Below, in pieces: positions 2,267 to 25,408 of a DNA stretch of 34,917 bases. How positions within the stretch are numbered: position 1 is the stretch's first letter; each line of letters starts with the position of its first letter. The notes beneath the pieces are model-generated. The model saw only the letters and a program-made list of their open reading frames with translations, ran no database searches and was not told where the DNA came from. Source of the stretch: a virus. The stretch spans positions 1-34,917 of the IMG/VR virus record IMGVR_UViG_3300030333_007769; one strand, 5' to 3'. A program made the translations under genes and the position numbers.

Positions 2267-2274
2267 TATTTATG
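2267..2274 (-). promoter_or_regulatory. Late-promoter-like box (CATAAATA) for the DUF5872-like gene and SOD
   Basis: CATAAATA on the minus strand ends exactly 5 nt before the ATG at 2261. By T4 geometry (box at -13 to -6), the transcript would begin at the A of the ATG. Confidence 0.55.
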
Positions 2275-5656: not shown

Positions 5657-5841
5657 TTCTGCATCTTTAATAACTCTTTAATAGCCTCCTCAGGACTAAT
5701 CGATTTAACGTCATCCTGAGGAGGTATTTTTTCGCCTGGCTCGGGTTTCGATATTTCTGCCATTGTAGCAAAAACATCTTGTTGTAATTTATTTACACTC
5801 GAGTCTCGTTCAAGACTAATTCTTGGATCATTAGTATCCAT
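5635..5841 (-). CDS. Unknown 68-aa protein
   Basis: Small acidic protein, not recognised. It has charged residues throughout, a Pro/Glu-rich centre (PEPGEKIPPQ) and a predicted C-terminal helix. Its ATG shares one base with the queD stop (TAATG), so it is translationally coupled to queD. Its 3' end overlaps phoH by 22 nt, and its coding sequence contains the inverted repeat that forms the phoH terminator. It may be real because of the coupling; the function is unknown. Confidence 0.65.
   Translation of the reverse strand: MDTNDPRISLERDSSVNKLQQDVFATMAEISKPEPGEKIPPQDDVKSISPEEAIKELLKMQNQTDSNT
5685..5732 (+). terminator. Rho-independent terminator of phoH, inside the opposing gene
   Basis: An 11-bp perfect GC-rich stem, CCTCCTCAGGA at 5685-5695 pairing with TCCTGAGGAGG at 5714-5724, has an 18-nt loop and is followed by TATTTTTT. 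It begins 28 nt after the phoH stop codon and lies in the coding sequence of the minus-strand gene. Confidence 0.8.
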
Positions 5842-6527
5842 TACCCCCTAAGACTATCACCATTAGCAGTACTCCAAGAAGTACCGGCAAATGGATCACT
5901 AATACCCGAACTAACTTTATTACCTACCGGTGCAGCTTCTGGGTTAGGAGCAGGTGCAGGTTCTGGTGCAGGTTCTTCTTTTTTAAAGTCCTGTGGGTTT
6001 GGTTGAGTATCGCATGCTTCTGCGGCTACAAACTTATCAACATCTACCGAGGTTTCACATTCTTGAAAGATCGTAGTTTGTACTTGTTGATTGGTATATG
6101 TTGCACTATTATCTTCATGCTCCCAAACTTCTACTCTATCAACATAACAACGGTCATTTGTAGTTTCTTTTACATGAGTGTTAGCTACCTTAAAACAAAA
6201 CTCAGCAAACTTTTCGATACCAACACCATTTTCCATCACACGTAGATTACATGCACCAGCATCATGTAGTTCCTTAAATTTATCAATAAAAGGATCATCA
6301 CCTGCAAGAACTGTAGTGTGATCAAAATGAAGTTGAAGTTTTGCTTTTAAAGCTTTAAGACTACCAAAATCTACTACCCAATTATTTTTATCTAGTTCAG
6401 AGCCACTGAACCAAAATTTAGCTTTAAGACGATAACCGTGAATATACTTACAATGCGAGTCAGCATGTGGTTGGCGAAATGCACAGCTACCCAATTCAAT
6501 AACTTTTGTACTTTGAAACTTAGCCAT
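5841..6527 (-). CDS. queD: QueD, 6-carboxytetrahydropterin synthase with C-terminal tail
   Basis: QueD turns 7,8-dihydroneopterin triphosphate into 6-carboxy-5,6,7,8-tetrahydropterin. The core (about 1-145) shows CAFRQPHADSHC (H21, catalytic-type C26), IHGY (H30), LHFDHTTVL with D69/H70, and VMENG (E99). The usual second His of HGH is Tyr here, so zinc binding may differ. Residues about 175-228 form an added tail with a Glu/Pro/Ala-rich linker (PAPEPAPAPNPEAAP) and a Ser/Gly-rich end, absent from the roughly 120-residue bacterial enzyme. A TATAAT box lies 6 nt before the ATG, separating it from the genes upstream. Confidence 0.88.
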   Translation of the reverse strand: MAKFQSTKVIELGSCAFRQPHADSHCKYIHGYRLKAKFWFSGSELDKNNWVVDFGSLKALKAKLQLHFDHTTVLAGDDPFIDKFKELHDAGACNLRVMENGVGIEKFAEFCFKVANTHVKETTNDRCYVDRVEVWEHEDNSATYTNQQVQTTIFQECETSVDVDKFVAAEACDTQPNPQDFKKEEPAPEPAPAPNPEAAPVGNKVSSGISDPFAGTSWSTANGDSLRG

Positions 6528-7285: not shown

Positions 7286-8345
7286 AATTAATGACATCTA
7301 AAATTGTAGTGTAGAAAGGTTTCTTAGATTCTCCGTGACATACTGGCTGATCTTTCATTCCATGATTCCAATTATCAAACCACAATAAGTTATAATCATA
7401 TAATTGAGCTATAATACTATAAAAAGGCTCTTCAGTAAAAGGTGCTATTTCATGATCATCGGTAAATGCATTAAACAACTTCATATACATAGGGAATATA
7501 ACATCATCCAATTCATCAAAAGAACCTCCAAAAAATGTACCTACGGTCCAATTAGGATAACCAGCTTGGGGAGTACCCTCACCGTCAATACACTGTTGAA
7601 TATTAAATTTCATCTTATCAGGTGTTAATTCGCAAGGATATGTAATACCAAGTTTCCAACCTAACAAGTCATATAAAATTTTACTAGTTTTATTTCCGTA
7701 TTCATCCCAATCAAATTCTGCTAAACGGTCGTTATGTTGTGGTTGGGTTACAAAAAACCATTTTTTGTCGGTCATTATACGTTTTATACCTTCTGTAAAT
7801 TTAGGAGTAAAAATATTATTTTCATTTTCTGGATAAAAATGTGAATCAGGGTATTTTTCATTTAATTCTTGCGGGTAAACATATTCAGCTCCACCGTAAC
7901 ATAACGGTATTTTACACCACTCCGTTACACCAGCATCCATCCAAAAAACTTTATCACATCCCCATTCATTATCACGTGCTTGCTGACACCATTTTAATTT
8001 CCAATGACATAAAAGTTCGTTTCTTGGAGCATAAATTACATCTCTTTCAACACCTTTATCGTCTTCACGTTTATACCATATAAAATTATTTTTATATTCT
8101 AATATTTCATATGATCTTGGCCATTCAAACAAATCACAGCCTATGATTTTATATTCTTTAAAAAACGGTTTTACCATTTCATCTAAAAACTCGACCATAT
8201 GAGGCCAGCAATATAAATGCATTGGCATATCAAGTTTTGATAAATTTTTTAAAGAACCTACATACAGCCCTTCGTCATTATCTTTTCCACCGGCAACCCA
8301 ATCGGAATTGGCGTTATAAACACATGTAACTAAAATTGGTTTCAT
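7281..8345 (-). CDS. HtrL/YibB-like protein, putative glycosyltransferase (copy 1)
   Basis: This 354-residue protein opens with PILVTCVYNA, then YVGSLKNLSKLDMPMHLYC (28-46), NELLCHWKLKW (109-119) and VFWMDAGVTEW (133-143). An Asp in a (W/F)xDxG motif with this layout fits the HtrL/YibB family, which resembles GT-A glycosyltransferases. HFYPENENNIFTP follows and is nearly repeated in the gene at 25921-26937, its paralogue. It overlaps the upstream sulfotransferase gene by 4 nt (ATGA), which suggests joint work on a surface glycan. The acceptor and donor are unknown. Confidence 0.75.
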   Translation of the reverse strand: MKPILVTCVYNANSDWVAGGKDNDEGLYVGSLKNLSKLDMPMHLYCWPHMVEFLDEMVKPFFKEYKIIGCDLFEWPRSYEILEYKNNFIWYKREDDKGVERDVIYAPRNELLCHWKLKWCQQARDNEWGCDKVFWMDAGVTEWCKIPLCYGGAEYVYPQELNEKYPDSHFYPENENNIFTPKFTEGIKRIMTDKKWFFVTQPQHNDRLAEFDWDEYGNKTSKILYDLLGWKLGITYPCELTPDKMKFNIQQCIDGEGTPQAGYPNWTVGTFFGGSFDELDDVIFPMYMKLFNAFTDDHEIAPFTEEPFYSIIAQLYDYNLLWFDNWNHGMKDQPVCHGESKKPFYTTILDVINY

Positions 8346-8965
8346 AATTTATCGTAATGTAAAAATTCAAAGTCTTCGCTAAAGTAATCATTTAAGTAAT
8401 CCAACGTTTCTCTTTTGATCTCATTAATATGTAATGCTGAACCTTTGTTCGATTTGTTAATATGTGGTAAATCAGGAGAGAACGTAAAATCGTTTGCCAT
8501 TAAAGCAAACTCTTCTGCTAAATTTTCGAACTTTAATATATAATCATATTTTATATTATTATTAAAGTAACGTTTTTGTGGTAAATTGTGGTCTCGAGGT
8601 AATAAAGGGAACTGATGCCAAAACCAGTCGAAGCCGTCCGGGTCAAACTCTTTATGGGAACCTGCTTCATGCATGAAATAAGAAGATATCGCTCTTTCAT
8701 ATGGGTTTCTTATGACTGTAAATTTTTTACACTTATTATAATACTTAGGATATTTAGATTCAATTATATCTGGTGTATAATGTTGAGGAGCGTATATTTC
8801 TTCTTTACCTTCAATTTTATATTCACCATGTTCATAACAGACAACATTACTTTCTTTAATTAACGTTTTTTCCTTATCAATTATACCAAATTTCTGTTCA
8901 ATAGACGTTCCTCCTGTTTTTGGTATGTGTACAAAAAGCAAATCGTGCTCAGTAAAAAATGGCAT
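8342..8965 (-). CDS. Sulfotransferase-family protein
   Basis: The protein shows the two PAPS-binding motifs of the sulfotransferase 2 type: FVHIPKTGGTSIE (phosphosulfate loop, about 11-23) and TVIRNPYERAISSYF (3'-phosphate binding, about 83-97). I choose the ATG at 8965, giving 207 residues. A TTG 27 nt upstream also opens the frame, but the ATG leaves about 12 residues before HIPK, which is normal for the family, and a TTTAAATA box sits 5 nt before it. It heads an operon with the HtrL-like gene, so sulfation of a phage-made or host glycan is the likely role (inference). Confidence 0.85.
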   Translation of the reverse strand: MPFFTEHDLLFVHIPKTGGTSIEQKFGIIDKEKTLIKESNVVCYEHGEYKIEGKEEIYAPQHYTPDIIESKYPKYYNKCKKFTVIRNPYERAISSYFMHEAGSHKEFDPDGFDWFWHQFPLLPRDHNLPQKRYFNNNIKYDYILKFENLAEEFALMANDFTFSPDLPHINKSNKGSALHINEIKRETLDYLNDYFSEDFEFLHYDKL

Positions 8966-8970
8966 AAAGG

Positions 8971-8978
8971 TATTTAAA
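8971..8978 (-). promoter_or_regulatory. Late-promoter-like box (TTTAAATA) for the sulfotransferase gene
   Basis: TTTAAATA on the minus strand ends exactly 5 nt before the ATG at 8965, which helps decide the start. A TATAAT box further upstream, near 8984-8989, is a second possible promoter. Confidence 0.45.
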
Positions 8979-9016
8979 CAGTTGAAGTTCAAAGTAAAGA
9001 TTATATTATAAAGTCG

Positions 9017-10060
9017 ATGACTGATAAAAATACAAGTTACGAGTGGTTAGGTGAGGATGATGAACTCACCGGCGAAAAGGATGTTATTGCTCAAGAAATA
9101 ATGGGTGATGAATTCAGCAAAGGTTATTGCCCTCCTATTAGAGTTTATGATCGATCAGTAAAAGCTGATAAGAAGTATATTTCTTCTTTACCTGATCTAC
9201 AAAACGGACCATCAAGCTTAATTCAAGGAGCTGCAGTTCCTATTCAACAAGTAGGTATTCATAATTTTAAATTACCTCTCAATTATAAAAAGAGAAATGG
9301 TAAAACTATTGAGTTAGAAACCAGTGTTACTGGTAGTGTTAGCTTAGAGGCTCATAAAAAGGGTATTAATATGTCTCGTATTATGAGAAGTTTTTATGAT
9401 CATAAAGACGAGGTGTTTAGTATTGGTAAAATTAAAGACGTGTTAGAAACATACAGAAAGAATCTGAAATGTTTTGACTCTCGTATTATGTTAAAGATTT
9501 CTTATCCTATAAAACAAAAAAGTTTACGAAGTGGTTTAGAAGGTTATCAATATTATGATGTAGTCTTTGAAGGTGACTTAACTAAAGATGGTAAATTCAA
9601 GAAATATATTCATTTTGATTTTGTTTATTCATCTGCTTGTCCATGTAGTTTCGAGCTAAGTGAGCATGCTGAAAAATATCGTAATAGAGCAACAGTACCT
9701 CACAGTCAACGAAGTGTAGCACGTGTTAGTGTTAAGTTCGATGAAATGCTATGGGTAGAAGATCTTCAAGAATTATGTCTTCAAGCTCTTCAAACTGAAA
9801 CACAAGTTATGGTAAAGAGAGAAGATGAGCAAGCATTTGCAGAGAAGAATGGTTCTTATCTTAAGTTTGTAGAAGATGCTGTTCGACTTCTTTATGATAA
9901 GCTTACTAATGAATCACGTATTACAGACTTTAAGATCGTAGCATCTCATAACGAAAGTCTTCACAGCCATAATGCAGTATCAGTTATTGTAAAAGGTGTC
10001 GAAGGTGGCTTTACTGCAGGTGTACCTAGAGATGTATTCGAATCGACTGGATTAAGATAA
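9017..10060 (+). CDS. folE2: GTP cyclohydrolase FolE2 (type IB)
   Basis: FolE2 converts GTP to 7,8-dihydroneopterin triphosphate, the precursor used by QueD. Diagnostic features are SLPDLQNG (57-64), VSLEAHKKGINMSR (108-121), SACPCS (C208 and C210), PHSQRS (229-233) and ESLHSHNA (313-320), all typical of the GCYH-IB family rather than FolE. It is about 40 residues longer than common bacterial forms, with an acidic N-terminal extension (1-40). It is transcribed away from the sulfotransferase gene and separate from queD and queE. TATTAT lies 7 nt before the ATG. Confidence 0.93.
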   Translation: MTDKNTSYEWLGEDDELTGEKDVIAQEIMGDEFSKGYCPPIRVYDRSVKADKKYISSLPDLQNGPSSLIQGAAVPIQQVGIHNFKLPLNYKKRNGKTIELETSVTGSVSLEAHKKGINMSRIMRSFYDHKDEVFSIGKIKDVLETYRKNLKCFDSRIMLKISYPIKQKSLRSGLEGYQYYDVVFEGDLTKDGKFKKYIHFDFVYSSACPCSFELSEHAEKYRNRATVPHSQRSVARVSVKFDEMLWVEDLQELCLQALQTETQVMVKREDEQAFAEKNGSYLKFVEDAVRLLYDKLTNESRITDFKIVASHNESLHSHNAVSVIVKGVEGGFTAGVPRDVFESTGLR

Positions 10061-11464: not shown

Positions 11465-12166
11465 ATGAAGAAAACATTTTTTTCATGTCTATTGTTGGCT
11501 GCTCTTACCGTAACCGGTAATGCGCAGGTTAAAATTGATGCAGGTTACGCTACCGATTTTACTATAGCAGGTACAGCTCGAGCTGAAGACTCGGCTTACT
11601 TGGGTATTACAGGTGTTAAGAACATTGCTGAAGGGTTGAATGCTTATGGGTTCAACTATTTAGTACCTGGAAATTTTTCCAGTGCTGATGACAGTGCTCT
11701 TGATGCGTCCCAGAATCATGCAGGTTTAGGTTTAGCATATGACGTTAGTTCGTTAGGTGCTTTTTCCTTTACTTTGGATGGTCAGGCTGTATATCATGTA
11801 GTAAACGGACCACTTGGTGATTCTTTCCAGTATTCACTCGGTGCTACATTTGATAGTTTACCTGTACTAGGAGAAGTATCTGATTTAACAATTGCATATA
11901 TTGACGATGTTGACTTAGATATTAATGGTGTTCAAGTTGAACTTAGTCGTAAGTACAACGTATGGGATTCATTGTCGGTCACACCGGCGATCGGGCATTA
12001 TGCTATGAACGACTACGACGCTACATATGCTGGGGCTACACTTACATATGAAGCTAAGGACTGGAAACCTTACGTAAACTTAAGGTACTTGGATAATGAT
12101 GCAGATGGGTTGCTTGCCGTTGATAGCGATACCCAGGTTTCTGCTGGTATAAAGTTTAACTTTTAA
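11465..12166 (+). CDS. Outer-membrane beta-barrel (porin-like) protein
   Basis: This 233-residue protein begins with a clear signal peptide: MKK, a hydrophobic core (5-16) and a TGNA|Q cut after residue 20. The mature part has alternating hydrophobic strands with Gly and aromatic residues and ends in KFNF, the C-terminal Phe pattern recognised by the BAM machinery. It would sit in the host outer membrane. The exact family is not recognised. It has more G/C in third positions than its neighbours and its own bacterial-type terminator, both consistent with recent capture from a host. It may change nutrient uptake or block superinfection (inference). Confidence 0.8.
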   Translation: MKKTFFSCLLLAALTVTGNAQVKIDAGYATDFTIAGTARAEDSAYLGITGVKNIAEGLNAYGFNYLVPGNFSSADDSALDASQNHAGLGLAYDVSSLGAFSFTLDGQAVYHVVNGPLGDSFQYSLGATFDSLPVLGEVSDLTIAYIDDVDLDINGVQVELSRKYNVWDSLSVTPAIGHYAMNDYDATYAGATLTYEAKDWKPYVNLRYLDNDADGLLAVDSDTQVSAGIKFNF

Positions 12167-14314: not shown

Positions 14315-14773
14315 ATGAACAAAGACGAAAAAAGTTTGTCAAAATTATATGAGGCAACTTTATCACCTTTAAATGGTGTTGGGATGGGACCCGGTGCAGA
14401 AGATTCAGCTGGCGGGTTAGGTAGTCCAACAATGACAAAAATTAACATCGAAGATGAAGAAAAAAATTGCGATGCCGGTAGTGATGTTGATATGGCTAAA
14501 GCTGAGTTATATAAGTTAGCTGATTATGCGCCCAAGCTACAAGAAATGGTTGATAGTTATGACGATTTAGAAGGATGGGTACAAGCTAAAATTACAAAAG
14601 CAAGTGATTATGTGTCGGACGTTTACCATTATTTAAAATATGAACATTCAGACAAACAACCTGAAATTGCAGACGAGGTTGACGTAGACGTCGACGTTGT
14701 TGAAGTTGATGATGCACCTCCAGGTGAAGTTGACCCAGGTGATGCTATAAAAAGACTAATGGGTGGAATTTAA
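14315..14773 (+). CDS. Acidic phage protein with YVSDVYHYLKY-type domain
   Basis: The 152-residue protein begins with SLSKLYEATLSP, a leader-like segment with LYE|A. The centre carries ELYKLADYAPKLQEMV and EGWVQAKITKASDYVSDVYHY (about 92-111), a conserved block I know from T4-like marine phage proteins of unknown role. The C-terminus is Asp/Val-rich (DVDVDVVEVDD). It is transcribed divergently from the basic 100-aa protein, and the acidic/basic pair could interact (inference). Its stop overlaps the facing stop in TTAA, and a terminator lies 32 nt beyond. Confidence 0.8.
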   Translation: MNKDEKSLSKLYEATLSPLNGVGMGPGAEDSAGGLGSPTMTKINIEDEEKNCDAGSDVDMAKAELYKLADYAPKLQEMVDSYDDLEGWVQAKITKASDYVSDVYHYLKYEHSDKQPEIADEVDVDVDVVEVDDAPPGEVDPGDAIKRLMGGI

Positions 14774-15384
14774 GAAGGTAAATTACTTAAAGATTTAAAG
14801 ACATAATCTACGAGGCTATCATTGTCTCGTAGATTTTCTGGTATATAAGGCATCAAATTTTCTTTAGATAGGTTATCAATTACATCTCTAAACCTACTTG
14901 CACTAACTGCACCACCTTCATCACCAATTACATCAGCAACTTCGACGTCAACAGTTACACCTTCGGGTATATGTTTGGATAATCCATTATAACGTGCTTT
15001 ATCATCACCTTTACCACCAACACCCACAATTACATGATCACCGGGTTGGGTATTTTCTCTAATATAGTCGTAAACTTCAGTAACAGCATTACGTGCCGTG
15101 GTAACATCAACGTTACGTAATGTACCAATTTCTTCAATATACCTTCTTAAGATGTCTGCAGCTGTATCTGCTGGTATATACTTGCCACCCGGGGTATAAC
15201 GTCTAGATTTTTCGGAAGGTTCAGTAACGATAACATTCATAAAACTGTCTGGACCAGCTTTACGTTTAAAATTTTCAATAAGTTGTAAATGACCTAAATG
15301 AGGTGGTTTAAATGATCCAGGAAACAAGACAATAGTGCGTTTATTATTATTTTCTTTAAGAAAGAATTTTTTAAACGTTATCAT
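14770..15384 (-). CDS. Cytidylyltransferase-like nucleotidyltransferase (HxGH family) with leader
   Basis: The protein begins MITFKKFFLKEN, a leader-like peptide, then TIVLFPGSFKPPHLGHLQLI with the HxGH motif, and later VSASRFR, matching the (I/V)SAxxxR motif. This is the nucleotidylyltransferase alpha/beta phosphodiesterase superfamily (NMN adenylyltransferase, CTP:glycerol-phosphate and others); the substrate is not determined. I choose ATG 15384, 6 nt after GATAAATA, over a TTG 6 nt upstream. The start lies inside the end of the glycosyltransferase-like gene, and its stop overlaps the facing stop. Confidence 0.85.
   Translation of the reverse strand: MITFKKFFLKENNNKRTIVLFPGSFKPPHLGHLQLIENFKRKAGPDSFMNVIVTEPSEKSRRYTPGGKYIPADTAADILRRYIEEIGTLRNVDVTTARNAVTEVYDYIRENTQPGDHVIVGVGGKGDDKARYNGLSKHIPEGVTVDVEVADVIGDEGGAVSASRFRDVIDNLSKENLMPYIPENLRDNDSLVDYVFKSLSNLPS
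14805..14837 (+). terminator. Rho-independent terminator of the acidic-protein gene, inside the facing gene
   Basis: AATCTACGAG (14805-14814) pairs perfectly with CTCGTAGATT (14826-14835), loop of 11 nt, followed by TTTT (14834-14837). It lies 32 nt past the stop of the plus-strand gene. Confidence 0.65.
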
Positions 15385-16660
15385 TATCAATATTTATCCA
15401 TTTACTGTACTCTTTATGAAAATAATCCCCTAATTTACTGATTACCTCATTAACAAAATCTATTCTCATGTTACCAATATCATTATGTTTAATATATTGA
15501 GGTTTAGCCACGGTTTCAAAAATCGAATAGTCAGCTTCCATATCAAGTTCATCAATGAAGTCTTTTAATTTGTCGCCAAATAAAATATCAAAAATAAACA
15601 ACTCAACATTAGCAAATTTTTGTAATAATATAATGAAAAAATGATATTTTATAGTTTTGTAAAATTTATCTTCATTATTAAAATCATTTGACATATACTC
15701 ATCATAACCGTCTTCGATTTGTTGTTTTATTAGTTTGTTATTTGCATTTTCAAAAAGATCAGGTTGAACTTGAGTAACAGATCTAGTATTAAACATTGTA
15801 ATATTGTTTTGTTCAATTAGAAAATCATCTGCTCTAGTAACTTTTATACTAGGTAACCCATATATACCAAATTCAGCATCTCTAATAGTATTAAACACCA
15901 AACCATCCATTGAAATACCAATACCTTTGTTTTGAGTGCAAATTAAATCAAATAAATTTTCGTTACCATATTTTACATACTTAAATTTTAATTTACTGTT
16001 TTCTAAAGATTGTTTTACCGTATCTCTTATACTGGTACCCATATTACCATAGAAGATTAAATCGTCACTTTTTAAACCTAATTCAAACCTTTGTTGAAAC
16101 ATATCTGCTTTGTTTAGATCTTTTAAATAGTATAATTTAAAAAATGATTCACATGCAAAACCTTGTTTACAAAATGAAAACTGTTTAAAGAAGGATTTAT
16201 CGGGTTCTGTTGGTGGGGTAGGATAACCAATTGAATGATAAACAATATTTGAGTTGTATAACTCCCTATCTACCCAAAACCAATCAGGGTCGGTGTGTAT
16301 TTCTTTGTAATAAAAATTTTGTTCTTTTTGATTATAAATTTTTAATTTATCACCATAAAACCCCATTTCTTTTACTCGGGTTTCAAAGAATTTCTTTTTG
16401 TGAGGGAAATAACCGTTAACAAATGCTTCAGGTAAAATTATGGATTTAACATTATAGGTTTCTAAAGCTTTTATAAGCTCATCTTCATCAAATTCTTCAA
16501 TGCGACCACCTAAAAAAGGTTCTATATAACCACCCATTGAAAACAAATAAAGAATTGGTTCTTTATCAGTAAGAAGTACAATTAAATCGTAGTTAAAAAT
16601 TGTACAATCTGGGTTAGGACCTTCCCCCAATCGAGGGTGGCGACTAAAAACTGATGCCAT
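15371..16660 (-). CDS. Glycosyltransferase-like protein
   Basis: This 429-residue protein has alternating alpha/beta character. GIGISMDGLVFNTIRDAEF and GLPSIK, around residue 250, resemble the donor-binding region of GT-B glycosyltransferases of capsule and LPS clusters (G..SxxG...RD.E...G.P). No TM segment is seen. ATG 16660 is chosen over an upstream start because it lies 4 nt after the preceding stop. It sits within an operon of probable virion genes, which is odd for a metabolic enzyme and hints at virion or packaged-component glycosylation (inference). Confidence 0.6.
   Translation of the reverse strand: MASVFSRHPRLGEGPNPDCTIFNYDLIVLLTDKEPILYLFSMGGYIEPFLGGRIEEFDEDELIKALETYNVKSIILPEAFVNGYFPHKKKFFETRVKEMGFYGDKLKIYNQKEQNFYYKEIHTDPDWFWVDRELYNSNIVYHSIGYPTPPTEPDKSFFKQFSFCKQGFACESFFKLYYLKDLNKADMFQQRFELGLKSDDLIFYGNMGTSIRDTVKQSLENSKLKFKYVKYGNENLFDLICTQNKGIGISMDGLVFNTIRDAEFGIYGLPSIKVTRADDFLIEQNNITMFNTRSVTQVQPDLFENANNKLIKQQIEDGYDEYMSNDFNNEDKFYKTIKYHFFIILLQKFANVELFIFDILFGDKLKDFIDELDMEADYSIFETVAKPQYIKHNDIGNMRIDFVNEVISKLGDYFHKEYSKWINIDNDNV
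15391..15398 (-). promoter_or_regulatory. Late-promoter-like box (GATAAATA) for the nucleotidyltransferase gene
   Basis: GATAAATA on the minus strand, 6 nt before ATG 15384, lies within the 3' coding end of the upstream gene. It supports the ATG over the TTG start. Confidence 0.5.
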
Positions 16661-16664
16661 AAAG

Positions 16665-17978
16665 TTACTTAGCGTTTTTACCCCTAAATCCAGTACCACC
16701 TGGATCGTTCCAACTTCTTGGGTTACCTATATAGTTCGAAAAACTCATACCTTTACCGTTATTGGGCATTGGTGCAGATTGATCATCTTCATCCTCTTCA
16801 TTTTCAGGTCTGTTACTTGCTAACATACCACCCATTCCCGTGACAATAAAATCACCTGTAATTTTTAGTGAGTTAGGATTACCAAATTCATCTTTACCAT
16901 AATCAGTGTCAGTAATTACAATACCTTCATGTTCATCAGCATGGCCGTAATCATCGGTAGTGTAACTTCTTAAAATTTCTTGACCCAACTGTCTGACTAG
17001 ATGATATGTTACAGCACCATCTACAGCAGTTTGAATATCTTCTTCTTCGTAAATTTCGTTTAAAGGTTTATTTTCTTCTACAGAATTTAAAACATTTAAA
17101 TAAGTTTCTTTACTAACTGCGCCTCTTAACCTACCATCTTTCGTTTTAACTCTTTCAGTTTTAGGAATAATGCTATTAGTAGCCCATTCTTGCAACGGTT
17201 GAGTTACTGTTTCATTAGCACTATATTTAACTGAAAAAGGTTCCTGTAAGGAAGCTGTTAAATTAGGGGTAGCTTTTTGAGTTACATATATACCAGACAA
17301 AACTTCAAAGCCATATTTTTGTGCAACCATGTTAACTTTATCTCTAAATGATTGCATTGCTTTTTCGTCATAGTTAACAGGTCTAGAAGTTTCTTTTTTA
17401 TCGGGTTTAGGTTTTAACCCGGGTCTTGTTACATTACCCTTTCTATCTTTTTTTTCTACAAATTGATTTATACCATGAAATGCAATTATCTTTTTACCTT
17501 TATAATCTATTACATTTTCTCTTCCGTCAATATATTCTGTATTAATAAATTTAGTAGGGTCACTCCATAAACCTAATTTTTGAAGTTCATTTACAGTACT
17601 AGGAATAGATTGGTTCATTATTTCTAAAATAGTTTTACCTTTAGCTCTCATTCCATGACCTTCAGGAAATCTTTCACCTAATGTGTCGATTCTGATACCA
17701 TTTACATCAATAATTTTTTGAGACCCTCTATCTAAAGCAAATTCTCGCTTATAACTATTAGCATCTGACTTAACAAGTTTAAGACTTAAATTTACACCAT
17801 CAAGCTTAATGGTAGATTTACCTCTGTTAAGTTTTTCAACTGCACTGTACATAACATTGATAATGTCATGAATATTTTTAACGTCAGGTAAGTCAAAAGG
17901 GTGCATCATGTGACCAGCAGCACCACCTTCATTTACCACTGTTAAATACTTCTCAAAAATTAATGACTGTTCATTCAT
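16665..17978 (-). CDS. Nucleic-acid-ligase-like nucleotidyltransferase with leader peptide
   Basis: The 437-residue protein carries the ordered motifs of the ATP-dependent DNA/RNA ligase superfamily: STIKLDGVNLSLKL with motif I KxDG (K58), TEYIDG (147-152, motif III-like), IIAFHG, EGIV (351-354, motif IV) and LKITG (371-375, motif V-like). It begins IFEKYLTVVNEGGAAGHMMHPF, a leader-like peptide with a VNE|G site. It overlaps the upstream nuclease-like gene by 4 nt (ATGA). Ligase family members also include capping enzymes, so the exact substrate is open. Membership of the superfamily is likely. Confidence 0.7.
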   Translation of the reverse strand: MNEQSLIFEKYLTVVNEGGAAGHMMHPFDLPDVKNIHDIINVMYSAVEKLNRGKSTIKLDGVNLSLKLVKSDANSYKREFALDRGSQKIIDVNGIRIDTLGERFPEGHGMRAKGKTILEIMNQSIPSTVNELQKLGLWSDPTKFINTEYIDGRENVIDYKGKKIIAFHGINQFVEKKDRKGNVTRPGLKPKPDKKETSRPVNYDEKAMQSFRDKVNMVAQKYGFEVLSGIYVTQKATPNLTASLQEPFSVKYSANETVTQPLQEWATNSIIPKTERVKTKDGRLRGAVSKETYLNVLNSVEENKPLNEIYEEEDIQTAVDGAVTYHLVRQLGQEILRSYTTDDYGHADEHEGIVITDTDYGKDEFGNPNSLKITGDFIVTGMGGMLASNRPENEEDEDDQSAPMPNNGKGMSFSNYIGNPRSWNDPGGTGFRGKNAK

Positions 17979-19480
17979 ACGTTTAATTTAATTGCTACCC
18001 CTTTCGATCTGGAGTCAATACTAAGACCAATAGCTAATTTGTTTTCATCAACTAATCTTTTAACTACATTAAATGTGTAAACAAATCTGTCTTTGACTGA
18101 ATCGCCTTGAGGCATAAGTGGAAACCCGTTCATTGTATTATCGTTCATGAATAAAATAATTTTAAATCCTTCATGTTCTTTATACATTGAAATTTGTAAT
18201 GCACCGACAATAGCTCTTAAAAGATTATCATCTCTTCTTCTAGCTAATGATCTCATTGTGTCTAAATCTAAAATTTGATCAAGACCTTCTTTAAATTGTT
18301 TTTTATCAAATCTAGCTTCACTTGCTAATTCTAAAAACCCATCAATAATTTCTTCTTTTGATAATCCCCATTCATTTAAAAAGAAGTTTTTAATTGCAGG
18401 GTCTGTTGTACTTGATTCACTATCTTTACTTGCACCAACTACTTTATTTTCGTTTGCGTTAATGTAATCTCTTAATGAGTTAAAATATTTTGATACTCTG
18501 TTAATAACGGCATTGTAAGATCTTTTATCAATAATTTTAGGAAGAACTCTTACTAAATCATTTTTAAGCTGAAATTCTAAATCATTAGCATCTTTAAGTT
18601 TAACTTCACTATCATTATCAATTTCTTCAACAAAATCTAAAACTTCTCTTATACCATCTGAAGTACCTTCTTCGAATTTTTTGTCTACTGATTGTATTAC
18701 ATTGTTTAAGTAAGAAGATAATTCATTTCTATTTTTGGCAAGGTGTTTATATTTTTCTCTAATTTCACTTCCAGTAAATACATCATGACCTTTTAGATCT
18801 TTAAGCATTTTAGGTAACGTTTTTAACGCTGCAAATGCATTACCTGTTTTACCAGGACGACCACTTAAACCTTTTAACTCTACATCACCAAATCCTGGAA
18901 ATAATAAATCACCAACATCACCTTTAACAGCATTTGAAAACATTGTTATTGCAATTTCGCCTTTACCAACACCAACATTATTAAGTGTGGGATTAATTAA
19001 ACAAATATCTTGAACTGTTTCATGAGGACTAGAAAAAACAGTTTTTACTGCATCTTCAAGTGGGTCAATTATACTAAATGTTGTTTCGTTTTCAGCAGCA
19101 TTAATCATAGTTTCCAAAAACAGTGTTTTGGTTTTCTTTTGAGATGCAAATTCTTTTAACTCTTTATTATTAACATCAGAAGTATTTTCTACTGCTTCAT
19201 TAACAGGACCTAATATTTTTTGAATATATTCTTTTTCGTTGGTACCTTTCCAATCACATTTTTCTAAAATATCGTTTAGAATTTTTACTGTACCCTCACT
19301 ACTGTTTAATATTTTTCTTTTTAATTTAGCAGCTGTTTCATCGTCAATAGCACCAACTACTTTAGGTTGTTGATCACTTTCAGCTTTAAAAAACACCTGA
19401 ACTCGTTCGCGTAAAGGTGCAACTTTTTTACCAAGTGTATTTTCAGTGTATATATCGTGTAGTGAGGTATATTTGCTCAT
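17975..19480 (-). CDS. PD-(D/E)XK-like nuclease candidate
   Basis: The 501-residue protein contains VGVGKGEIAI (169-178) and GFGDVELKGLSGRPG (196-210). GKGE followed by D199-x-E201-x-K203 fits the PD-(D/E)XK nuclease fold, with E175 as a further acidic residue. The rest is mainly helical and unmatched. The N-terminus MSKYTSLHDIYTEN is leader-like. It lies 1 nt after the upstream gene and overlaps the ligase-like gene. A virion-packaged nuclease acting on host or rival DNA, or a recombination factor, is inference. The fold call rests on motif spacing. Confidence 0.65.
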   Translation of the reverse strand: MSKYTSLHDIYTENTLGKKVAPLRERVQVFFKAESDQQPKVVGAIDDETAAKLKRKILNSSEGTVKILNDILEKCDWKGTNEKEYIQKILGPVNEAVENTSDVNNKELKEFASQKKTKTLFLETMINAAENETTFSIIDPLEDAVKTVFSSPHETVQDICLINPTLNNVGVGKGEIAITMFSNAVKGDVGDLLFPGFGDVELKGLSGRPGKTGNAFAALKTLPKMLKDLKGHDVFTGSEIREKYKHLAKNRNELSSYLNNVIQSVDKKFEEGTSDGIREVLDFVEEIDNDSEVKLKDANDLEFQLKNDLVRVLPKIIDKRSYNAVINRVSKYFNSLRDYINANENKVVGASKDSESSTTDPAIKNFFLNEWGLSKEEIIDGFLELASEARFDKKQFKEGLDQILDLDTMRSLARRRDDNLLRAIVGALQISMYKEHEGFKIILFMNDNTMNGFPLMPQGDSVKDRFVYTFNVVKRLVDENKLAIGLSIDSRSKGVAIKLNV

Positions 19481-19481
19481 A

Positions 19482-19826
19482 TTAATATCCTATATCTGGG
19501 TCGTCTGAATAAGTGCCAATAAATCTTTTCAAATCTGAAAGTTTTTGACGACCATTCTTTTCATTAATTTCATCATCAGCAATATCATCGGGAATATCAT
19601 CAGGATTAGTATTAATAAATAAAGCTTTTTTAACTAAACGTATTAATTCAAGTTCACCTTCAGAAGTAAGTTTTTGAACTTCAGGTTCAGGTGCTGGTTC
19701 TTGAACCTGCATATCAACTTGAGACACTTCAACACCTTCTGGCGGTGGTTCAGATAACCCCGCAGTGTTTTCTAAAAGAGAACGTTTATTTTTAATTAAT
19801 TTGTAAAATTTGCTAGATATTTTCAT
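19482..19826 (-). CDS. Unknown 114-aa protein
   Basis: Not recognised. It begins MKISSKFYKLIKNKRSLLEN, a basic leader with an LLE|N site, followed by a Pro/Glu-rich disordered stretch (PEPPEG...PAPEPE) and an acidic C-terminal half with two predicted helices. The start overlaps the preceding stop (ATGA) and the next gene begins 1 nt after its stop. It may be a small internal virion protein. Confidence 0.65.
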   Translation of the reverse strand: MKISSKFYKLIKNKRSLLENTAGLSEPPPEGVEVSQVDMQVQEPAPEPEVQKLTSEGELELIRLVKKALFINTNPDDIPDDIADDEINEKNGRQKLSDLKRFIGTYSDDPDIGY

Positions 19827-20248
19827 AATTTTTCCTTTACTTGTCTGATAATATCATCAGTTGTGTCTTTATATTTTTTCAAACCAGCTTCTACTGCTCC
19901 TTGTCTTCTTTTCATTTCATGAGCAGCATTAGGGTTTCTTCTAGCTTCTCTTTCAATAGTGTCATCTAAATCAGCTTTAGCATTTTGTTGATCGTCAAAT
20001 TCTTCACCATCTTCTGCAGGTAATTTATTACCGTTTTGTATTAGATCGTCTATTGAAAAATAAACTCTTTGAACTGCTTTAAATAATTCAGGGTTTTCAT
20101 CAACTTGACTTGCTGCATACTGCTGAATACCTCTATCGTTAACAATATTGTGAACTAATTGAAGAATATCCTTACCAACGTCTAAAGATTCTTCATCTTG
20201 TGAAACGTAGTTAGAAAAACCTTCTTTAATAGCTTGTTCGAACTTCAT
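19823..20248 (-). CDS. Unknown 141-aa helical protein
   Basis: Not recognised. The N-terminus MKFEQAIKEGFSNY is leader-like with IKE|G. The body is rich in Asp, Glu, Gln and Lys and predicted to be mostly helical, with ERRARR/EREARRNPNAAHEM-type basic runs near the C-terminus. A GATAAATA late-like box lies 6 nt before the ATG, so it probably starts a late transcript covering the nuclease, ligase and downstream genes. Confidence 0.65.
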   Translation of the reverse strand: MKFEQAIKEGFSNYVSQDEESLDVGKDILQLVHNIVNDRGIQQYAASQVDENPELFKAVQRVYFSIDDLIQNGNKLPAEDGEEFDDQQNAKADLDDTIEREARRNPNAAHEMKRRQGAVEAGLKKYKDTTDDIIRQVKEKL

Positions 20249-20848: not shown

Positions 20849-21268
20849 TCAACTCTTTTTTATTTTGCCGAGTCTTAAATTAATAATCCCGTTATAAAAT
20901 TTATCTTCATGTAATAGAACATCATTATCAAACTGTAATTTAGCTTCATAATATGCAAGTTCTGATTTAGAATTACAAAATCTGACAATTTCGAAAATAA
21001 ATTTATCTTTTCCGTACTCAATTAAATCATGATTAACTTTATCTGAAGAAGAAGTGTAAGTTTTCCAATCTGTTTCTTTTATAACATGTCTACGGCGTGA
21101 TTTACCTTTAAGAGGAGGAAGTTTAGCTACTTTCTGTGCCTGTTTTTTGCCGATATATTTCTTTCCGGTAACAGTATTTGTTATAACGTAGATGAAACCG
21201 AAGAAGTCCTCAGGTATATCATCTCTTTTCCCATTATAAGTCCAATGCCCTAAATTATCAACTGTCAT
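20849..21268 (-). CDS. GIY-YIG family endonuclease
   Basis: The 139-residue protein has the GIY-YIG signature with FIYVITNTVTG (25-35) and KKYIGKKQ (36-43), then DWKTYTSSSDKVNHDLIEYG and EIVRFCNSKSELAYYEAKLQF, with the conserved Glu of the last part acting as metal ligand. This resembles homing endonucleases and phage Seg-type enzymes. No intron is seen, so a free-standing enzyme is likely. Its start overlaps the upstream basic gene by 4 nt. It could act on rival phage DNA or on junctions. Confidence 0.75.
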   Translation of the reverse strand: MTVDNLGHWTYNGKRDDIPEDFFGFIYVITNTVTGKKYIGKKQAQKVAKLPPLKGKSRRRHVIKETDWKTYTSSSDKVNHDLIEYGKDKFIFEIVRFCNSKSELAYYEAKLQFDNDVLLHEDKFYNGIINLRLGKIKKS

Positions 21269-21521: not shown

Positions 21522-21920
21522 ATGAGTTCTATTATAGATCAATACAATGAAGAGTTAAAAAAGCATTTGGTTATAGATGAACTTAATATAAAAGATGTCC
21601 AATTAGGATTGCCTGGTAAAAAACATCTGTGGGTTGGTAGACTAATTCGTCACAAACAAGAAGTAAATGAATTAAAAACAAAAAAGCATAAATTAATTCA
21701 ACTTTTAACTAAACAAATTCAAGAACAAAGTAATGTAAGATTGTCTGTACCTGCTGCTGAAAAAGTTGCATGGAATATGGACCCCGTTAAAGAAATAAAT
21801 AACAGAATAAGTGACTTGGAACTTGTAATAGAATTTTTAGAAAAGGTAGAAAAAATATTTAACGGTATGAGTTTTGATATAAAAAATATTATTGAAATTC
21901 AAAAATTAGAAACATTATGA
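21522..21920 (+). CDS. uvsY: UvsY-like recombination mediator
   Basis: UvsY helps UvsX load on gp32-coated single-stranded DNA. The 132-residue length (T4 protein 137), the all-helical basic character, and segments such as LVIDELNIKDVQLGLPGKK and LWVGRLIRHKQEVNELK fit the T4-like UvsY family. The neighbours uvsW and gp55 are typical of the same recombination and late-transcription set. Its stop overlaps the next gene by ATGA. No exact signature motif exists, so the call rests on size, pattern and context. Confidence 0.75.
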   Translation: MSSIIDQYNEELKKHLVIDELNIKDVQLGLPGKKHLWVGRLIRHKQEVNELKTKKHKLIQLLTKQIQEQSNVRLSVPAAEKVAWNMDPVKEINNRISDLELVIEFLEKVEKIFNGMSFDIKNIIEIQKLETL

Positions 21921-22399
21921 TAGATATAAGATTAGTTATTTTTGATATAGACGGTGTTTTAACTGATGGTAAAGCTGTTTATGATGATATGGGTAAAGTT
22001 ATATCTAAAACATACAATCAAAAAGATATAACAGCTTTACGAAGATTTAAAAATGAGCTTAATATAAATGCTATATTATTTTCGGGTAGTTTAGATATAA
22101 ATCCTGCTTTTGCTAAAAGACGTAAATTCGATTTTTTTCATGTTAACATAAAAAAGGGTGAAAATAAAAACCAAAAATTAAACGATATATGTTTTACATA
22201 TAACACACCTTCTAGTCAAGTTGCATTTGTTGGTGATGATATTCAAGATTTAGAAATTATGAAAAATGTAGGTTTTGCTTTTTGTCCTCAAGATGCAATT
22301 GCTGAAATAAAAAATGTTTCTTGTATACTACCGGTTAACGGGGGTGATGGAGTTGCTGCACATTTATTTGAATATGTGAGTAATACACTTAAATCATAA
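21917..22399 (+). CDS. KdsC-like HAD phosphatase
   Basis: The 160-residue protein shows HAD motif I FDIDGVLTDG (9-18; D10, D12), a middle segment with FSGS, Lys in the KGENKNQKL region, and motif IV FVGDDIQDLEIM (104-115). It matches the KdsC (3-deoxy-manno-octulosonate 8-phosphate phosphatase) and sialic-acid-type phosphatases, which lack a cap domain and form tetramers. It precedes a nucleotidyltransferase and a glycosyltransferase with overlapping starts, so it may make a KDO-like or nonulosonic sugar. The exact substrate is not determined. Confidence 0.85.
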   Translation: MIDIRLVIFDIDGVLTDGKAVYDDMGKVISKTYNQKDITALRRFKNELNINAILFSGSLDINPAFAKRRKFDFFHVNIKKGENKNQKLNDICFTYNTPSSQVAFVGDDIQDLEIMKNVGFAFCPQDAIAEIKNVSCILPVNGGDGVAAHLFEYVSNTLKS

Positions 22400-23136
22400 T
22401 GATGAATCTTGTAATACCAATGGCAGGCAAAAGTTCTTCCTTTTCTAAGGAAGGTATTAACACCCCAAAACCGTATTTAAAAATTAATGGGTTGTCTATG
22501 GTACACCGAGCTTACCTATCACTCGACCTTGATGAACATATTAATAAAGCATATTTTATAGCTTTAGATGAACACAGAGAAACATATAAAGTAACACAAG
22601 AGATTGAAAAATTTTGTGATAAAGCAGTAACTATTTTCTTACCTGAAATTACTTCCGGACCAGCTGAAACTATTTCTAAATTAGAAGGTATTATACCTGA
22701 TAATGAACCAATGTTACAATCTAATGTTGATCAAGTTTTAGATTGGGAAAGTAGCCGGTTTATTGAATTTTTACACACTAATGAATTAGATGCAGCTTTA
22801 GTTACAATTAACACTGTTGATCCTCATTATAGTTTTGCAAGATATGATAAGAATAGAGTTGCTCTTAATGTAACCGAAAAACAAGTTATTAGTAATGAAG
22901 GTTTAATTGGTACACATTATTGGAAAAAAGCAAGTGACTATTTTCGGTCATATAAAGAAGCAAAAAAACAAGGGTTAACTTATAATGACGAAACTTATGT
23001 ATCACATACATTCAATCCTTTAATTCAAGAAGGTAAAATTGTAAGAGATTACAAATTAAAGCAACACGAAAAACAACATGTTATAGGTAGTCCTAAAGAC
23101 CTCGAAAGATTTTCATTGTTAATTAATTATGAGTGA
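22399..23136 (+). CDS. Sugar-phosphate nucleotidyltransferase-like protein
   Basis: This 245-residue protein has the N-terminal NTP_transferase motif VIPMAGKSSSF (5-15) and TPKPYLKING (22-31), as in the RmlA/GlmU/IspD group, and QSNVDQV, where D marks the metal-binding region. The start shares TAATG with the kdsC-like stop and its end overlaps the next gene by 8 nt. It probably activates a sugar phosphate for the following glycosyltransferase. The nucleotide and sugar cannot be told from sequence. Confidence 0.8.
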   Translation: MMNLVIPMAGKSSSFSKEGINTPKPYLKINGLSMVHRAYLSLDLDEHINKAYFIALDEHRETYKVTQEIEKFCDKAVTIFLPEITSGPAETISKLEGIIPDNEPMLQSNVDQVLDWESSRFIEFLHTNELDAALVTINTVDPHYSFARYDKNRVALNVTEKQVISNEGLIGTHYWKKASDYFRSYKEAKKQGLTYNDETYVSHTFNPLIQEGKIVRDYKLKQHEKQHVIGSPKDLERFSLLINYE

Positions 23137-23929
23137 TATTACATTAGTAATTTTATCGTCGGACCCATATCAACCAATTTTAAAAGTATGGGAAAAATAT
23201 TTCAACAAACATTGGCCTCAATGCCCCTACAAAGTATTATCACCTTGCAACCACAAACATTTTGAATCTGATACTATTGACTTTGTAGTTACTGGTATTG
23301 ACGCAAGAGAAGATGCAACGCATTTTAAACCAATGTTATTGCAAGTTTTAGATAAAGTTGATACAGAATATATTCTTTATATGGTAGAAGACCAAATTTT
23401 GGTTAATGATGTTATTGAGGAAAATTTTATTCATACTATTGATTATATGCGCCGTTTTGACATTTCAAAAGTAAGGTGTTTATCTATGCCGGGTCCTGAT
23501 GAAAGTTTGGAAGTTCAAAGCAGTTTTATGTGTAATAGAGATTTTGGTATTATTAGTAAAGATAATATGTATAGAAATTCATTACAAGCTGCTATTTGGA
23601 GAAAACGAGACTTTGTAGAATTATTAAATAGTAGACAAAATGATTTTTCTGGGTGGGAATTAGAAACTTCAGATGATTTTAGAGATTATTCTAAAAAATG
23701 GAATTACATTGCGTGTAAACAAGGTAAAGGCGGTACATTAATTTCAAGGGAAGAGGGTCAAGGTGACTCCCCGCTTTTACAGTATGTAGAATTAGTAAGG
23801 TGGGGTAAATTTGACAGACATTATATTGATTACTTTAGAGAAATTTTTGACAAAGATAATTTTTCAGTTGATACCCCGGAGTACGAAAAATTTGGTGCTG
23901 GTCTTTCTGCTGACGAATTACCAGCATAA
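23129..23929 (+). CDS. Glycosyltransferase-like protein of surface-glycan type
   Basis: The 266-residue protein contains VEDQIL (86-91) in a position where GT-A enzymes carry metal-binding acids, SLQAAIWRK (151-159) and GWELE (175-179). The SLQ..IW.....WE.E pattern recurs in LPS and capsule glycosyltransferases. It starts inside the preceding nucleotidyltransferase gene, completing a three-gene cassette. The next gene, uvsW, has its own TATAAT box 7 nt before its ATG. No membrane segment is seen. The call is moderately sure; donor and acceptor are unknown. Confidence 0.65.
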   Translation: MSDITLVILSSDPYQPILKVWEKYFNKHWPQCPYKVLSPCNHKHFESDTIDFVVTGIDAREDATHFKPMLLQVLDKVDTEYILYMVEDQILVNDVIEENFIHTIDYMRRFDISKVRCLSMPGPDESLEVQSSFMCNRDFGIISKDNMYRNSLQAAIWRKRDFVELLNSRQNDFSGWELETSDDFRDYSKKWNYIACKQGKGGTLISREEGQGDSPLLQYVELVRWGKFDRHYIDYFREIFDKDNFSVDTPEYEKFGAGLSADELPA

Positions 23930-23965: not shown

Positions 23966-25408
23966 ATGGCTAAGTTTAATTACGATAGTAAAAAACGAAA
24001 AGCTACGATTAAGATTGATCAACTAGATTTAGTCAGGGAACATTTCTCTTATCCTAATGAAGGGGCAGTCTTTGCAAGACGTAGGGGAAATTGGTATGTT
24101 CCCCAACGTTCATATATAATCACACCCATGGGTAAGTATGATGTGGGTATGACGTTAGATATAGTTAGGTTTATTAAAAGAGAATTACCTAATGAACCTA
24201 TTGAGCTAGATAATACTATATTAGACGTAATTAAACCTAAAATTGAAGCAGAGAAAGTATCTCTAGCTTTGAACTTACGTGATTATCAAGAAGAAATTGT
24301 AGATGAATGTATGAAATTTGGTAGAGGTGTTGTTGTGCTTGCTACCGCAGGTGGTAAAACACTTACCATGGCTAATTTATTAGAACGCATTTATCAATCT
24401 GTTGATAATAAAGAGACTTGGAAAGCTCTAATTATAGTTCCTGATTTAGGTTTGGTTAATCAAACGTTCAAAGATTTAGAAGATTATAAAGTTAGTTTTA
24501 CTCACGGTAAATGGACTGGTAATAACCCAGTTAACATTGCAGACAATGTTATAATTGCTAACATGGGTATTTTACAAAGTGAAAAAAGTGATATTGACTT
24601 TATTAATTACGTTGATGTATTGATTATAGATGAAGTTCATAAAATAAGAGCTAAAAATAAAATTAATAAAATTGTATCTAAAATTAACACACCAAATAAA
24701 TTCGGCTTTACAGGTACCTTACCTGATAATGATGCTGATATGTGGAATATTTTTGGTAAAATAGGTCCAACCATTTATGAAAAGGGTAGTTATGAGTTAA
24801 GATTAGAACAGTATGTAAGTAATGCTTTAATTCAAATTGTAAAGTTGCATTACTTTAATAAACCTCGTTACTCATCTGAAATAAATGACCCCGGTGAACG
24901 TTATAGACAGGAATTTGAATTCTTATTTACTAATGAGTTTAGAAATAATATAATTAAAAAATTATCTACTGGAGTTAAAAAGAATACTCTTATCTTAGTA
25001 GATTATATAAGACATGGTGAAGAACTTTATAACGTATTAAGTCAAGATAAAAGTAAAAAAGTATATTTTATTCAAGGAGAAGTAGATGTCGAAGAACGTG
25101 ATAAAATTAAAAAGCTTATCGAAAGCAATGATAACATTATTTGTATTGCTATTAGTAAAATATTCAGTACTGGTATCAGTATTAATAATTTACATTATAT
25201 TATCTTTGCTTCTGGAGGTAAAGCAAAAATTAAAATTCTTCAATCAATCGGAAGGGGATTGAGGTTACATAAAAATAAAAAGAAACTTATTATTATAGAT
25301 ATTGCTGATCAATTACGATATAGTACCCAACATTCAGAAAAACGTATAGAATTATACCAGAAGGAAAATATACAAACAAAAGTTGTTGATTTTACCGAGA
25401 ACAGTTGA
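23966..25408 (+). CDS. uvsW: UvsW helicase
   Basis: UvsW is an SF2 helicase that unwinds D-loops, R-loops and stalled forks and drives the switch away from origin replication in T4. The protein has Walker A ATAGGKT (126-132), the DEVH box (222-225), GFTGTLPDN (motif III, about 252-260) and the motif VI-like SIGRGLRLHKNKK. The N-terminal 100 residues form the substrate-recognition domain typical of UvsW. The 480-residue length is close to the T4 protein. It precedes gp55, which shares a late role. Confidence 0.92.
   Translation: MAKFNYDSKKRKATIKIDQLDLVREHFSYPNEGAVFARRRGNWYVPQRSYIITPMGKYDVGMTLDIVRFIKRELPNEPIELDNTILDVIKPKIEAEKVSLALNLRDYQEEIVDECMKFGRGVVVLATAGGKTLTMANLLERIYQSVDNKETWKALIIVPDLGLVNQTFKDLEDYKVSFTHGKWTGNNPVNIADNVIIANMGILQSEKSDIDFINYVDVLIIDEVHKIRAKNKINKIVSKINTPNKFGFTGTLPDNDADMWNIFGKIGPTIYEKGSYELRLEQYVSNALIQIVKLHYFNKPRYSSEINDPGERYRQEFEFLFTNEFRNNIIKKLSTGVKKNTLILVDYIRHGEELYNVLSQDKSKKVYFIQGEVDVEERDKIKKLIESNDNIICIAISKIFSTGISINNLHYIIFASGGKAKIKILQSIGRGLRLHKNKKKLIIIDIADQLRYSTQHSEKRIELYQKENIQTKVVDFTENS

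What the first reader, a model, noticed from the sequence alone, without database searches (positions are those of the whole stretch)
16665..19480. Coupled PD-(D/E)XK-like nuclease and ligase-like nucleotidyltransferase, both with leader peptides
The 17975-19480 gene carries GKGE and GDVELKG (D199, E201, K203) as a nuclease-like core; the 16665-17978 gene carries KxDG (K58), EGIV and LKITG as ligase-superfamily motifs. Their reading frames overlap by ATGA and both start with a capsid-targeting-like peptide. A cut-and-seal pair that might be packaged with DNA is not something I know as a described system. It could act on incoming DNA ends, on host nucleic acid, or on superinfecting DNA.
Basis: partly seen in the sequence, partly recalled or inferred. 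Interest (0 to 1): 0.72.

Follow-up and report, generated by a model that had tools for sequence, protein, structure and literature searches.

The report
Phage head-packaged ligase, nuclease and nucleotidyltransferase
A T4-like virus of bacteria carries side-by-side genes for a DNA-cutting-type enzyme and an RNA-ligase-type enzyme that look built to be packed into the virus head and delivered into the next host, nearly always with a third, cofactor-making-type enzyme, and this set is widespread in uncultured phages but seems not to have been described.

Summary
16665-17978 (LigA) is a divergent RNA-ligase-like covalent nucleotidyltransferase: at least 209 viral contigs encode relatives; K58, D60, G61 and E148 are invariant in 98/98; a low-confidence model ranks RNA ligases first, with K58 at the catalytic lysine. 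In 93 of 94 relatives [ILV]xE directly precedes GGxxGHMxHPF, the form of a T4 prohead-protease site. 17975-19480 has a PD-(D/E)XK-like core (E175, D191, E201, K203); its fold could not be modelled. That extended core recurs only in a nuclease-like family beside LigA in other phages. In relatives the slot after a LigA paralogue holds a nuclease-like protein of one of four sequence clusters, several sharing one leader, sometimes fused. Best explanation: a virion-delivered kit in which LigA seals or adenylylates ends, probably of RNA; the HIGH enzyme supplies a cofactor; the nuclease is exchangeable cargo. Packaging and all activities are inferred. I found no published description. New variant of a known kind (T4-type internal proteins), with probably a new ligase family.

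The parts
17975..19480 (-). Nuclease-like protein, 501 aa; PD-(D/E)XK-like core E175, D191, E201, K203 (about 18872-18958)
   Evidence: ORF; core invariant against type-I relatives; extended pattern 0/300,000 shuffles; no Pfam/PHROG/PDB family match; fold model failed
16665..17978 (-). LigA: RNA-ligase-like covalent nucleotidyltransferase, 437 aa; K58 at 17805-17807
   Evidence: relatives; 98/98 K58, D60, G61, E148; RNA ligases top 16 rows
17928..17978 (-). LigA leader, residues 1-17 (MNEQSLIFEKYLTVVNE), with predicted prohead-protease site before GG
   Evidence: [ILV]xE directly before GG in 93 of 94 relatives
17975..17978 (-). ATGA overlap joining nuclease stop and LigA start
14770..15390 (-). 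HIGH-type nucleotidyltransferase (GSFKPPHLGH) with leader ...FKKFFLKE; third member of the set
   Evidence: TIGR00125 36.6 bits, cut-off 27.7; PF01467 above cut-off; homologous to the domain fused to LigA in L110, E 8e-16
15371..16699 (-). Unknown protein (442 aa as listed; real start probably further in) between LigA and the HIGH enzyme; conserved only in the same clade
   Evidence: L002, L003 only; no significant Pfam or PHROG match
19482..20248 (-). Two small proteins (114 and 141 aa) directly upstream, conserved in the same clade; first has a leader-like N-terminus
21522..21920 (+). UvsY, marking the T4-type neighbourhood
   Evidence: phrog_231 E 2.2e-10
23966..25408 (+). UvsW-type helicase, which also borders the LigA cluster in relatives
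   Evidence: phrog_16 E 1e-69; relatives

Best explanation
The three minus-strand genes make a virion-delivered enzyme kit. Their N-terminal leaders take them into the prohead core and the prohead protease removes the leader after [ILV]xE, as for T4 internal proteins (inferred from the leaders). After injection, LigA activates itself with AMP on K58 and joins or adenylylates nucleic-acid ends, most likely of RNA cut by host defences (inferred from similarity to RNA ligases). The HIGH-type nucleotidyltransferase makes a dinucleotide cofactor, most simply NAD+ from NMN, that either feeds LigA or restores a pool emptied by host defences (inferred). The nuclease-like protein is exchangeable cargo that cuts host or competing DNA (inferred). 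Shown here: conserved catalytic residues, conserved cleavage-type site, near-universal pairing of LigA with the HIGH enzyme including fusions, recurrent pairing with nuclease-like genes of several families, and near-confinement to viruses.
For: LigA catalytic residues invariant in 98/98. VIA alignment: the 16 top rows are all RNA ligases, best Trl1 6n67 Z 5.9, rmsd 4.0, 106 aligned, T4 Rnl2 2hvr Z 5.8, 3.4, 101; first unrelated row 3.4; model residue 59 pairs with the residue after the catalytic lysine of Rnl2, Rnl1, REL1 and others (catalytic lysine numbers from general knowledge). [ILV]xE|GG in 93/94, also within fusions. HIGH signature fused (16) or within 3.5 kb (67) for 83 of 99 LigA; 5 of the other 8 non-truncated cases have it on inspection; background 2 of 795 ORFs, both the window enzyme's own orthologues. 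The HIGH domain of L025 best matches archaeal-type NMN adenylyltransferase among named enzymes. Nuclease-like genes follow or are fused to the LigA paralogue in 29 of 67; profile matches at the core c2-c3 P 2.5e-5, c3-c4 P 1.2e-4. One leader MAxTxGDIRARF on nuclease types with otherwise unrelated profiles, P 6e-5 to 6e-7. Location before terminase/portal in fused-type phages. One weak hit in 84,980 cellular genomes. T4 internal proteins: diverse cargo with conserved targeting sequence (PMC3012670, PMC9958956).
Against: The LigA model is poor (mean pLDDT 53), Z values under 8 are middling, and no Pfam, NCBIfam or PDB sequence match ties LigA to ligases. The window clade departs at two family positions (I57 for E, L82 for R). 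E-G-G before GHM could be structural rather than a cleavage site, since it is kept in fusions. The nuclease fold is unmodelled and profile comparison of the window nuclease with other types is not significant. NMN adenylyltransferase models score far below their cut-offs. No virion proteomics is available. 17 of 67 relatives have a short leader protein in place of the nuclease.
Confidence: 0.45

Rival explanations
1. Separate anti-defence cargos that merely share the same packaging locus: the HIGH enzyme rebuilds NAD+ against NADase defences, LigA repairs tRNA, and the nuclease attacks host or rival DNA, with no biochemical coupling.
For: T4 internal proteins are a diverse set with only the targeting sequence in common (PMC3012670). 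Phages rebuild NAD+ against depletion (PMC9503650, PMC12774641). The nuclease slot is variable.
Against: LigA and the HIGH enzyme are fused in both orders (HIGH-LigA in L059 and others, LigA-HIGH in L110), and the paralogue LigB is fused to the same kind of domain in 67 of 67, more than shared packaging would need.
Confidence: 0.25
2. An end-modification or capping system: the HIGH enzyme makes an activated nucleotide-X and LigA transfers it to DNA or RNA 5' ends of the phage, protecting them, while the nuclease trims or tests ends.
For: Ligase and capping enzymes share one superfamily and the HIGH family makes nucleotide-X cofactors (general knowledge); tight LigA-HIGH linkage.
Against: Structure rows are RNA ligases, not capping enzymes (absence there is not evidence); no triphosphatase-type partner was recognised next to LigA.
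Confidence: 0.12
3. DNA cut-and-seal pair: the nuclease opens and the ligase closes incoming phage DNA ends or superinfecting DNA.
For: Direct overlap of the reading frames in the window clade; PD-(D/E)XK enzymes usually act on DNA (general knowledge).
Against: LigA compares with RNA ligases rather than DNA ligases; the nuclease is missing or replaced in over half of relatives while LigA and the HIGH enzyme stay.
Confidence: 0.1
4. Ordinary intracellular enzymes; the leader similarity is chance or structural and nothing is packaged.
For: No virion data; EGG is invariant and could be part of the fold.
Against: The region before GG varies in length (7-59 aa in stand-alone proteins) and sequence but ends in [ILV]xE in 93 of 94; neighbouring genes carry the same kind of leader.
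Confidence: 0.08

Closest known systems
T4 RNA ligases Rnl1 (gp63) and Rnl2 (gp24.1), fungal tRNA ligase Trl1 adenylyltransferase domain
   Same: Motif I lysine in register; motif III glutamate, EGxV and K(L/I)TG as motifs IV/V; best structural rows
   Different: No detectable sequence similarity; leader with protease-type site; N-terminal GGxxGHMxHPFD signature; fused or linked to a HIGH enzyme
T4 internal proteins IPI-III and Alt (capsid-targeted, gp21-processed)
   Same: Short N-terminal leader ending in a Glu cleavage-type site, variable cargo (PMC9958956, PMC5694885)
   Different: Cargo here is ligase-type, HIGH-type and nuclease-type enzymes; virion presence not shown
Phage NAD+ salvage (NadV/NadM/NadR) and NARP pathways
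   Same: HIGH-type nucleotidyltransferase; archaeal NMN adenylyltransferase models are the best named-enzyme hits for one relative
   Different: Below all NMNAT cut-offs; no Nudix, kinase or NadV partner recognised here; fused to ligase-like domains
Polyvalent and DarA-type packaged proteins (PMC5512222)
   Same: Multi-domain proteins packaged and injected against the host
   Different: In the passages read, that survey reports no packaged RNA ligase-HIGH-nuclease set
PHROG cytidyltransferases phrog_395 / phrog_3041
   Same: The HIGH domain matches them
   Different: The ligase-like part has no PHROG family

Membership tests
Covalent nucleotidyltransferase / RNA ligase superfamily (LigA) | Motif I KxDG with nucleophilic lysine | tested here: met
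   K58, D60, G61 in 98 of 98
Covalent nucleotidyltransferase / RNA ligase superfamily (LigA) | Motifs III, IV and V | tested here: met
   E148 in 98/98; EG[ILV]V..K[LIF]TG in 95/99
Covalent nucleotidyltransferase / RNA ligase superfamily (LigA) | Nucleotidyltransferase fold | tested here: inconclusive
   Low-confidence model; top 16 rows RNA ligases, Z 5.9 to 3.4
Covalent nucleotidyltransferase / RNA ligase superfamily (LigA) | Recognition by a curated ligase family model | tested here: not met
   No ligase family for LigA in Pfam, NCBIfam or PHROGs; no ligase in PDB sequence search. Hence 'RNA-ligase-like', not filed in a named ligase family
Covalent nucleotidyltransferase / RNA ligase superfamily (LigA) | Forms enzyme-AMP and seals ends | not testable with these tools
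   Needs biochemistry
PD-(D/E)XK nuclease (window 17975-19480) | E ... D ... (D/E)xK core in order | tested here: met
   E175, D191, E201, K203
PD-(D/E)XK nuclease (window 17975-19480) | alpha-beta-beta-beta-alpha-beta fold | tested here: inconclusive
   Model pLDDT 32
PD-(D/E)XK nuclease (window 17975-19480) | Profile similarity to known members | tested here: inconclusive
   No Pfam, PADLOC or PDB match; profile link to slot nucleases not significant
T4-type capsid-targeted internal protein | Short N-terminal leader ending in a prohead-protease-type site | tested here: met
   LigA family: [ILV]xE before GG in 93/94; nuclease leader weak
T4-type capsid-targeted internal protein | Present and processed in the virion | not testable with these tools
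   Needs virion mass spectrometry
HIGH-type nucleotidyltransferase (14770-15390) | HxGH motif and curated family score | tested here: met
   GSFKPPHLGH; TIGR00125 36.6 vs 27.7, PF01467 28.4 vs 21
NMN adenylyltransferase | Score above equivalog cut-off | tested here: not met
   TIGR01527 11.8 bits (window) and 30 (L025) against 181.2

The most novel reading that the evidence does not exclude
A new family of virion-packaged RNA ligases works with its own cofactor-making enzyme, recycling NMN to NAD+ as AMP donor, as an injected kit that repairs host-cut RNA before any phage gene is expressed, with a swappable nuclease in the same cassette.
Probability: 0.2. Interest if true: 0.85.

Novelty: new variant of a known kind. 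Interest (0 to 1): 0.62.

Why it matters
RNA repair by phages is known as something made after infection begins. A ligase delivered in the virion could act before host anticodon nucleases or other defences win, and the constant pairing with a HIGH-type enzyme would link end sealing to cofactor supply. The exchangeable nuclease behind one shared leader is a readable record of which cargos T4-like phages load into their heads, and GGxxGHMxHPFD after a cleavage-type Glu is a family-wide marker for finding more.

Tried and rejected
Sequence libraries: no Pfam, PHROG, PADLOC or NCBIfam family for LigA or the nuclease. tblastn of both window proteins in 50,697 phage records: none; the window HIGH enzyme: none there either. 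PDB sequence searches with LigA, LigB and nuclease profiles: nothing credible. Structure prediction of the nuclease failed and used the last job. Unknown ORF 15371-16699 as a degenerate LigB: no similarity found. D199 as the catalytic Asp: rejected in favour of D191 by alignment. Nuclease homology by profile: not significant; only the extended pattern separates it from shuffles. Cluster 5 slot proteins (L069, L070) were left unassigned: no clear motif. Some LigB paralogues have lost the motif-I lysine (5 of 67) and most the aspartate, so LigB was not counted as an active ligase.

Full report
What is in the window. The window is a 34.9-kb fragment of a T4-like phage (UvsY 21522-21920 and a UvsW-type helicase 23966-25408; the viral record is G000). 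The two ORFs of the finding are at the stated places on the minus strand, 501 and 437 aa, and overlap by ATGA.

The ligase-like protein (LigA). The scan of 84,980 cellular genomes gave a single weak hit on a 4.5-kb contig. After merging, 99 distinct LigA proteins were held. K58, D60, G61 and E148, and also H23 and H26, are invariant in 98 of 98 that cover them, and EG[ILV]V...K[LIF]TG is found in 95 of 99. AlphaFold2 on the window protein gave a poor model (mean pLDDT 53). Foldseek's best PDB rows were nevertheless fungal tRNA ligase and T4 RNA ligase 1 at E about 0.1-0.6. In the second look by VIA-align the first 16 rows are all RNA ligases (Z 5.9 to 3.4; best 6n67 Z 5.9, rmsd 4.0, 106 aligned; fifteen of them Z 4.5 or more), the first unrelated rows have Z 3.4, and the aligned stretch starts one residue after K58 and one after the catalytic lysine of several of these ligases (lysine positions from general knowledge). 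Z under 8 is middling, so I treat the fold as likely, not shown. The window clade itself departs from the family at two usual positions (I57, L82).

The leader. Immediately before the GGxxGHMxHPF signature, 93 of 94 relatives have [ILV]-x-E. Preceding residues vary in length and sequence and often read MKxxxFxxFxxE, as do many neighbouring ORFs. T4 internal proteins carry 10-20-residue targeting leaders removed by the prohead protease (PMC5694885, PMC9958956); that T4's protease cuts after (I/L)xE is from general knowledge. The site is also kept where LigA is the C-terminal half of a fusion, which would fit cleavage of a polyprotein but could equally mean that EGG is structural.

The constant partner. 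The window has a HIGH-type nucleotidyltransferase at 14770-15390 (TIGR00125 above cut-off; PF01467) whose N-terminus MITFKKFFLKE is a leader of the same kind, conserved in L002 and L003. Among 99 LigA proteins a HIGH signature is fused in 16 and within 3.5 kb in 67; 8 contigs end too soon; of the remaining 8, five (the window itself, L091, L153, L154, L165) have one on inspection. Among 795 other ORFs only two have the signature, the window enzyme's own orthologues. Fusions exist in both orders: HIGH-LigA in Microcystis phage Mel-JY01 (sequence), L024, L040 and L059, and LigA-HIGH in L110, whose HIGH domain is homologous to the window's (E 8e-16). Most T4-like relatives carry instead LigA followed by LigB-HIGH, where LigB is a second, weaker ligase-like domain (Pfam RNA_ligase E 0.004, below cut-off, 3 of 21 members) that has lost the lysine in 5 of 67 and mostly the aspartate.

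The nuclease. The window protein has GKGE...GD...ELKG. A loose pattern appears in 2% of shuffles. After LigB-HIGH in relatives the next gene, or a fused C-terminal part, is nuclease-like in 29 of 67 distinct cases, in four sequence clusters (13, 6, 5 and 5 members). Three have GxGE-D-ExK cores in every member, with GxAE in L051; clusters 2-3 and 3-4 align at the core by profile (P 2.5e-5 and 1.2e-4). The fourth has GE...D...SSK. Four members are fused to LigB-HIGH (L018, L036, L054, L066). Across clusters with unrelated bodies one leader MAxTxGDIRARF recurs (P 6e-5 to 6e-7), so the leader is conserved and the cargo changes. The window nuclease is not linked to these by profile statistics, but an extended core pattern is shared only by it and cluster 4 among 1,587 ORFs and appears in 0 of 300,000 shuffles (ranges set after seeing both). 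Its structure model failed. In the window clade the order is nuclease, LigA, unknown ORF, HIGH enzyme, seen also in L002 and L003.

Mechanism. Shown: conservation, pairing, fusions, leader site, near-confinement to viruses. Inferred: packaging, injection, adenylylation, RNA as substrate, NAD+ or another dinucleotide as the HIGH product, DNA cutting. I rate the coupled kit at 0.45, uncoupled anti-defence cargos at 0.25, end modification at 0.12, a pure DNA cut-and-seal pair at 0.10.

Literature. Searches for packaged ligases, RNA repair with nucleotidyltransferases and capsid-targeted nucleases found papers on T4 internal proteins, phage RNA repair and NAD+ systems (PMC3012670, PMC7824862, PMC9503650, PMC5512222, PMC12774641) but, in what I read, no description of this set. 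The library holds open-licence papers only, so absence is not proof.

Noticed in passing
window 1189-1824 (-): Fe/Mn superoxide dismutase whose Pfam domain starts at residue 17, preceded by a leader-like peptide (MNFEKYADLIVEANTA, with I-V-E): a possible packaged SOD.
   Followed up: partly
window 4118-4867, 5841-6527, 9017-10060: QueE-like radical SAM protein, QueD-like PTPS and FolE2: part of a 7-deazaguanine pathway, suggesting modified DNA or queuosine supply.
   Followed up: partly
window 2270-3247, 8342-8992, 21917-23929: GDP-mannose 4,6-dehydratase, sulfotransferase, HAD phosphatase and nucleotidyl/glycosyltransferase-like genes: a sugar-handling set.
   Followed up: no
window 20849-21268 (-): SegE-type GIY-YIG endonuclease near UvsY, conserved in L001-L003.
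   Followed up: no
window 11465-12166 (+): Protein with a signal-peptide-like start and outer-membrane-barrel-like sequence in a phage.
   Followed up: no
LigB of L018, L036, L054, L051, L083: LigB paralogues with the motif-I lysine replaced by Q or N: likely inactive as ligases.
   Followed up: yes
L110:8004-10349 and L084:5584-8331: A ParB-like segment (DGHHRW) fused to the LigA-HIGH proteins.
   Followed up: no
phage records LR756501-LR756504, LR745206: LigB-like domains matching without the HIGH domain in 634-735 kb uncultured phage genomes.
   Followed up: no
L006:3603-5891, L008, L070 and others: Large ORFs before LigA with many repeated ES(V/I)xEA-type sites, like polyproteins of internal head proteins.
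   Followed up: no
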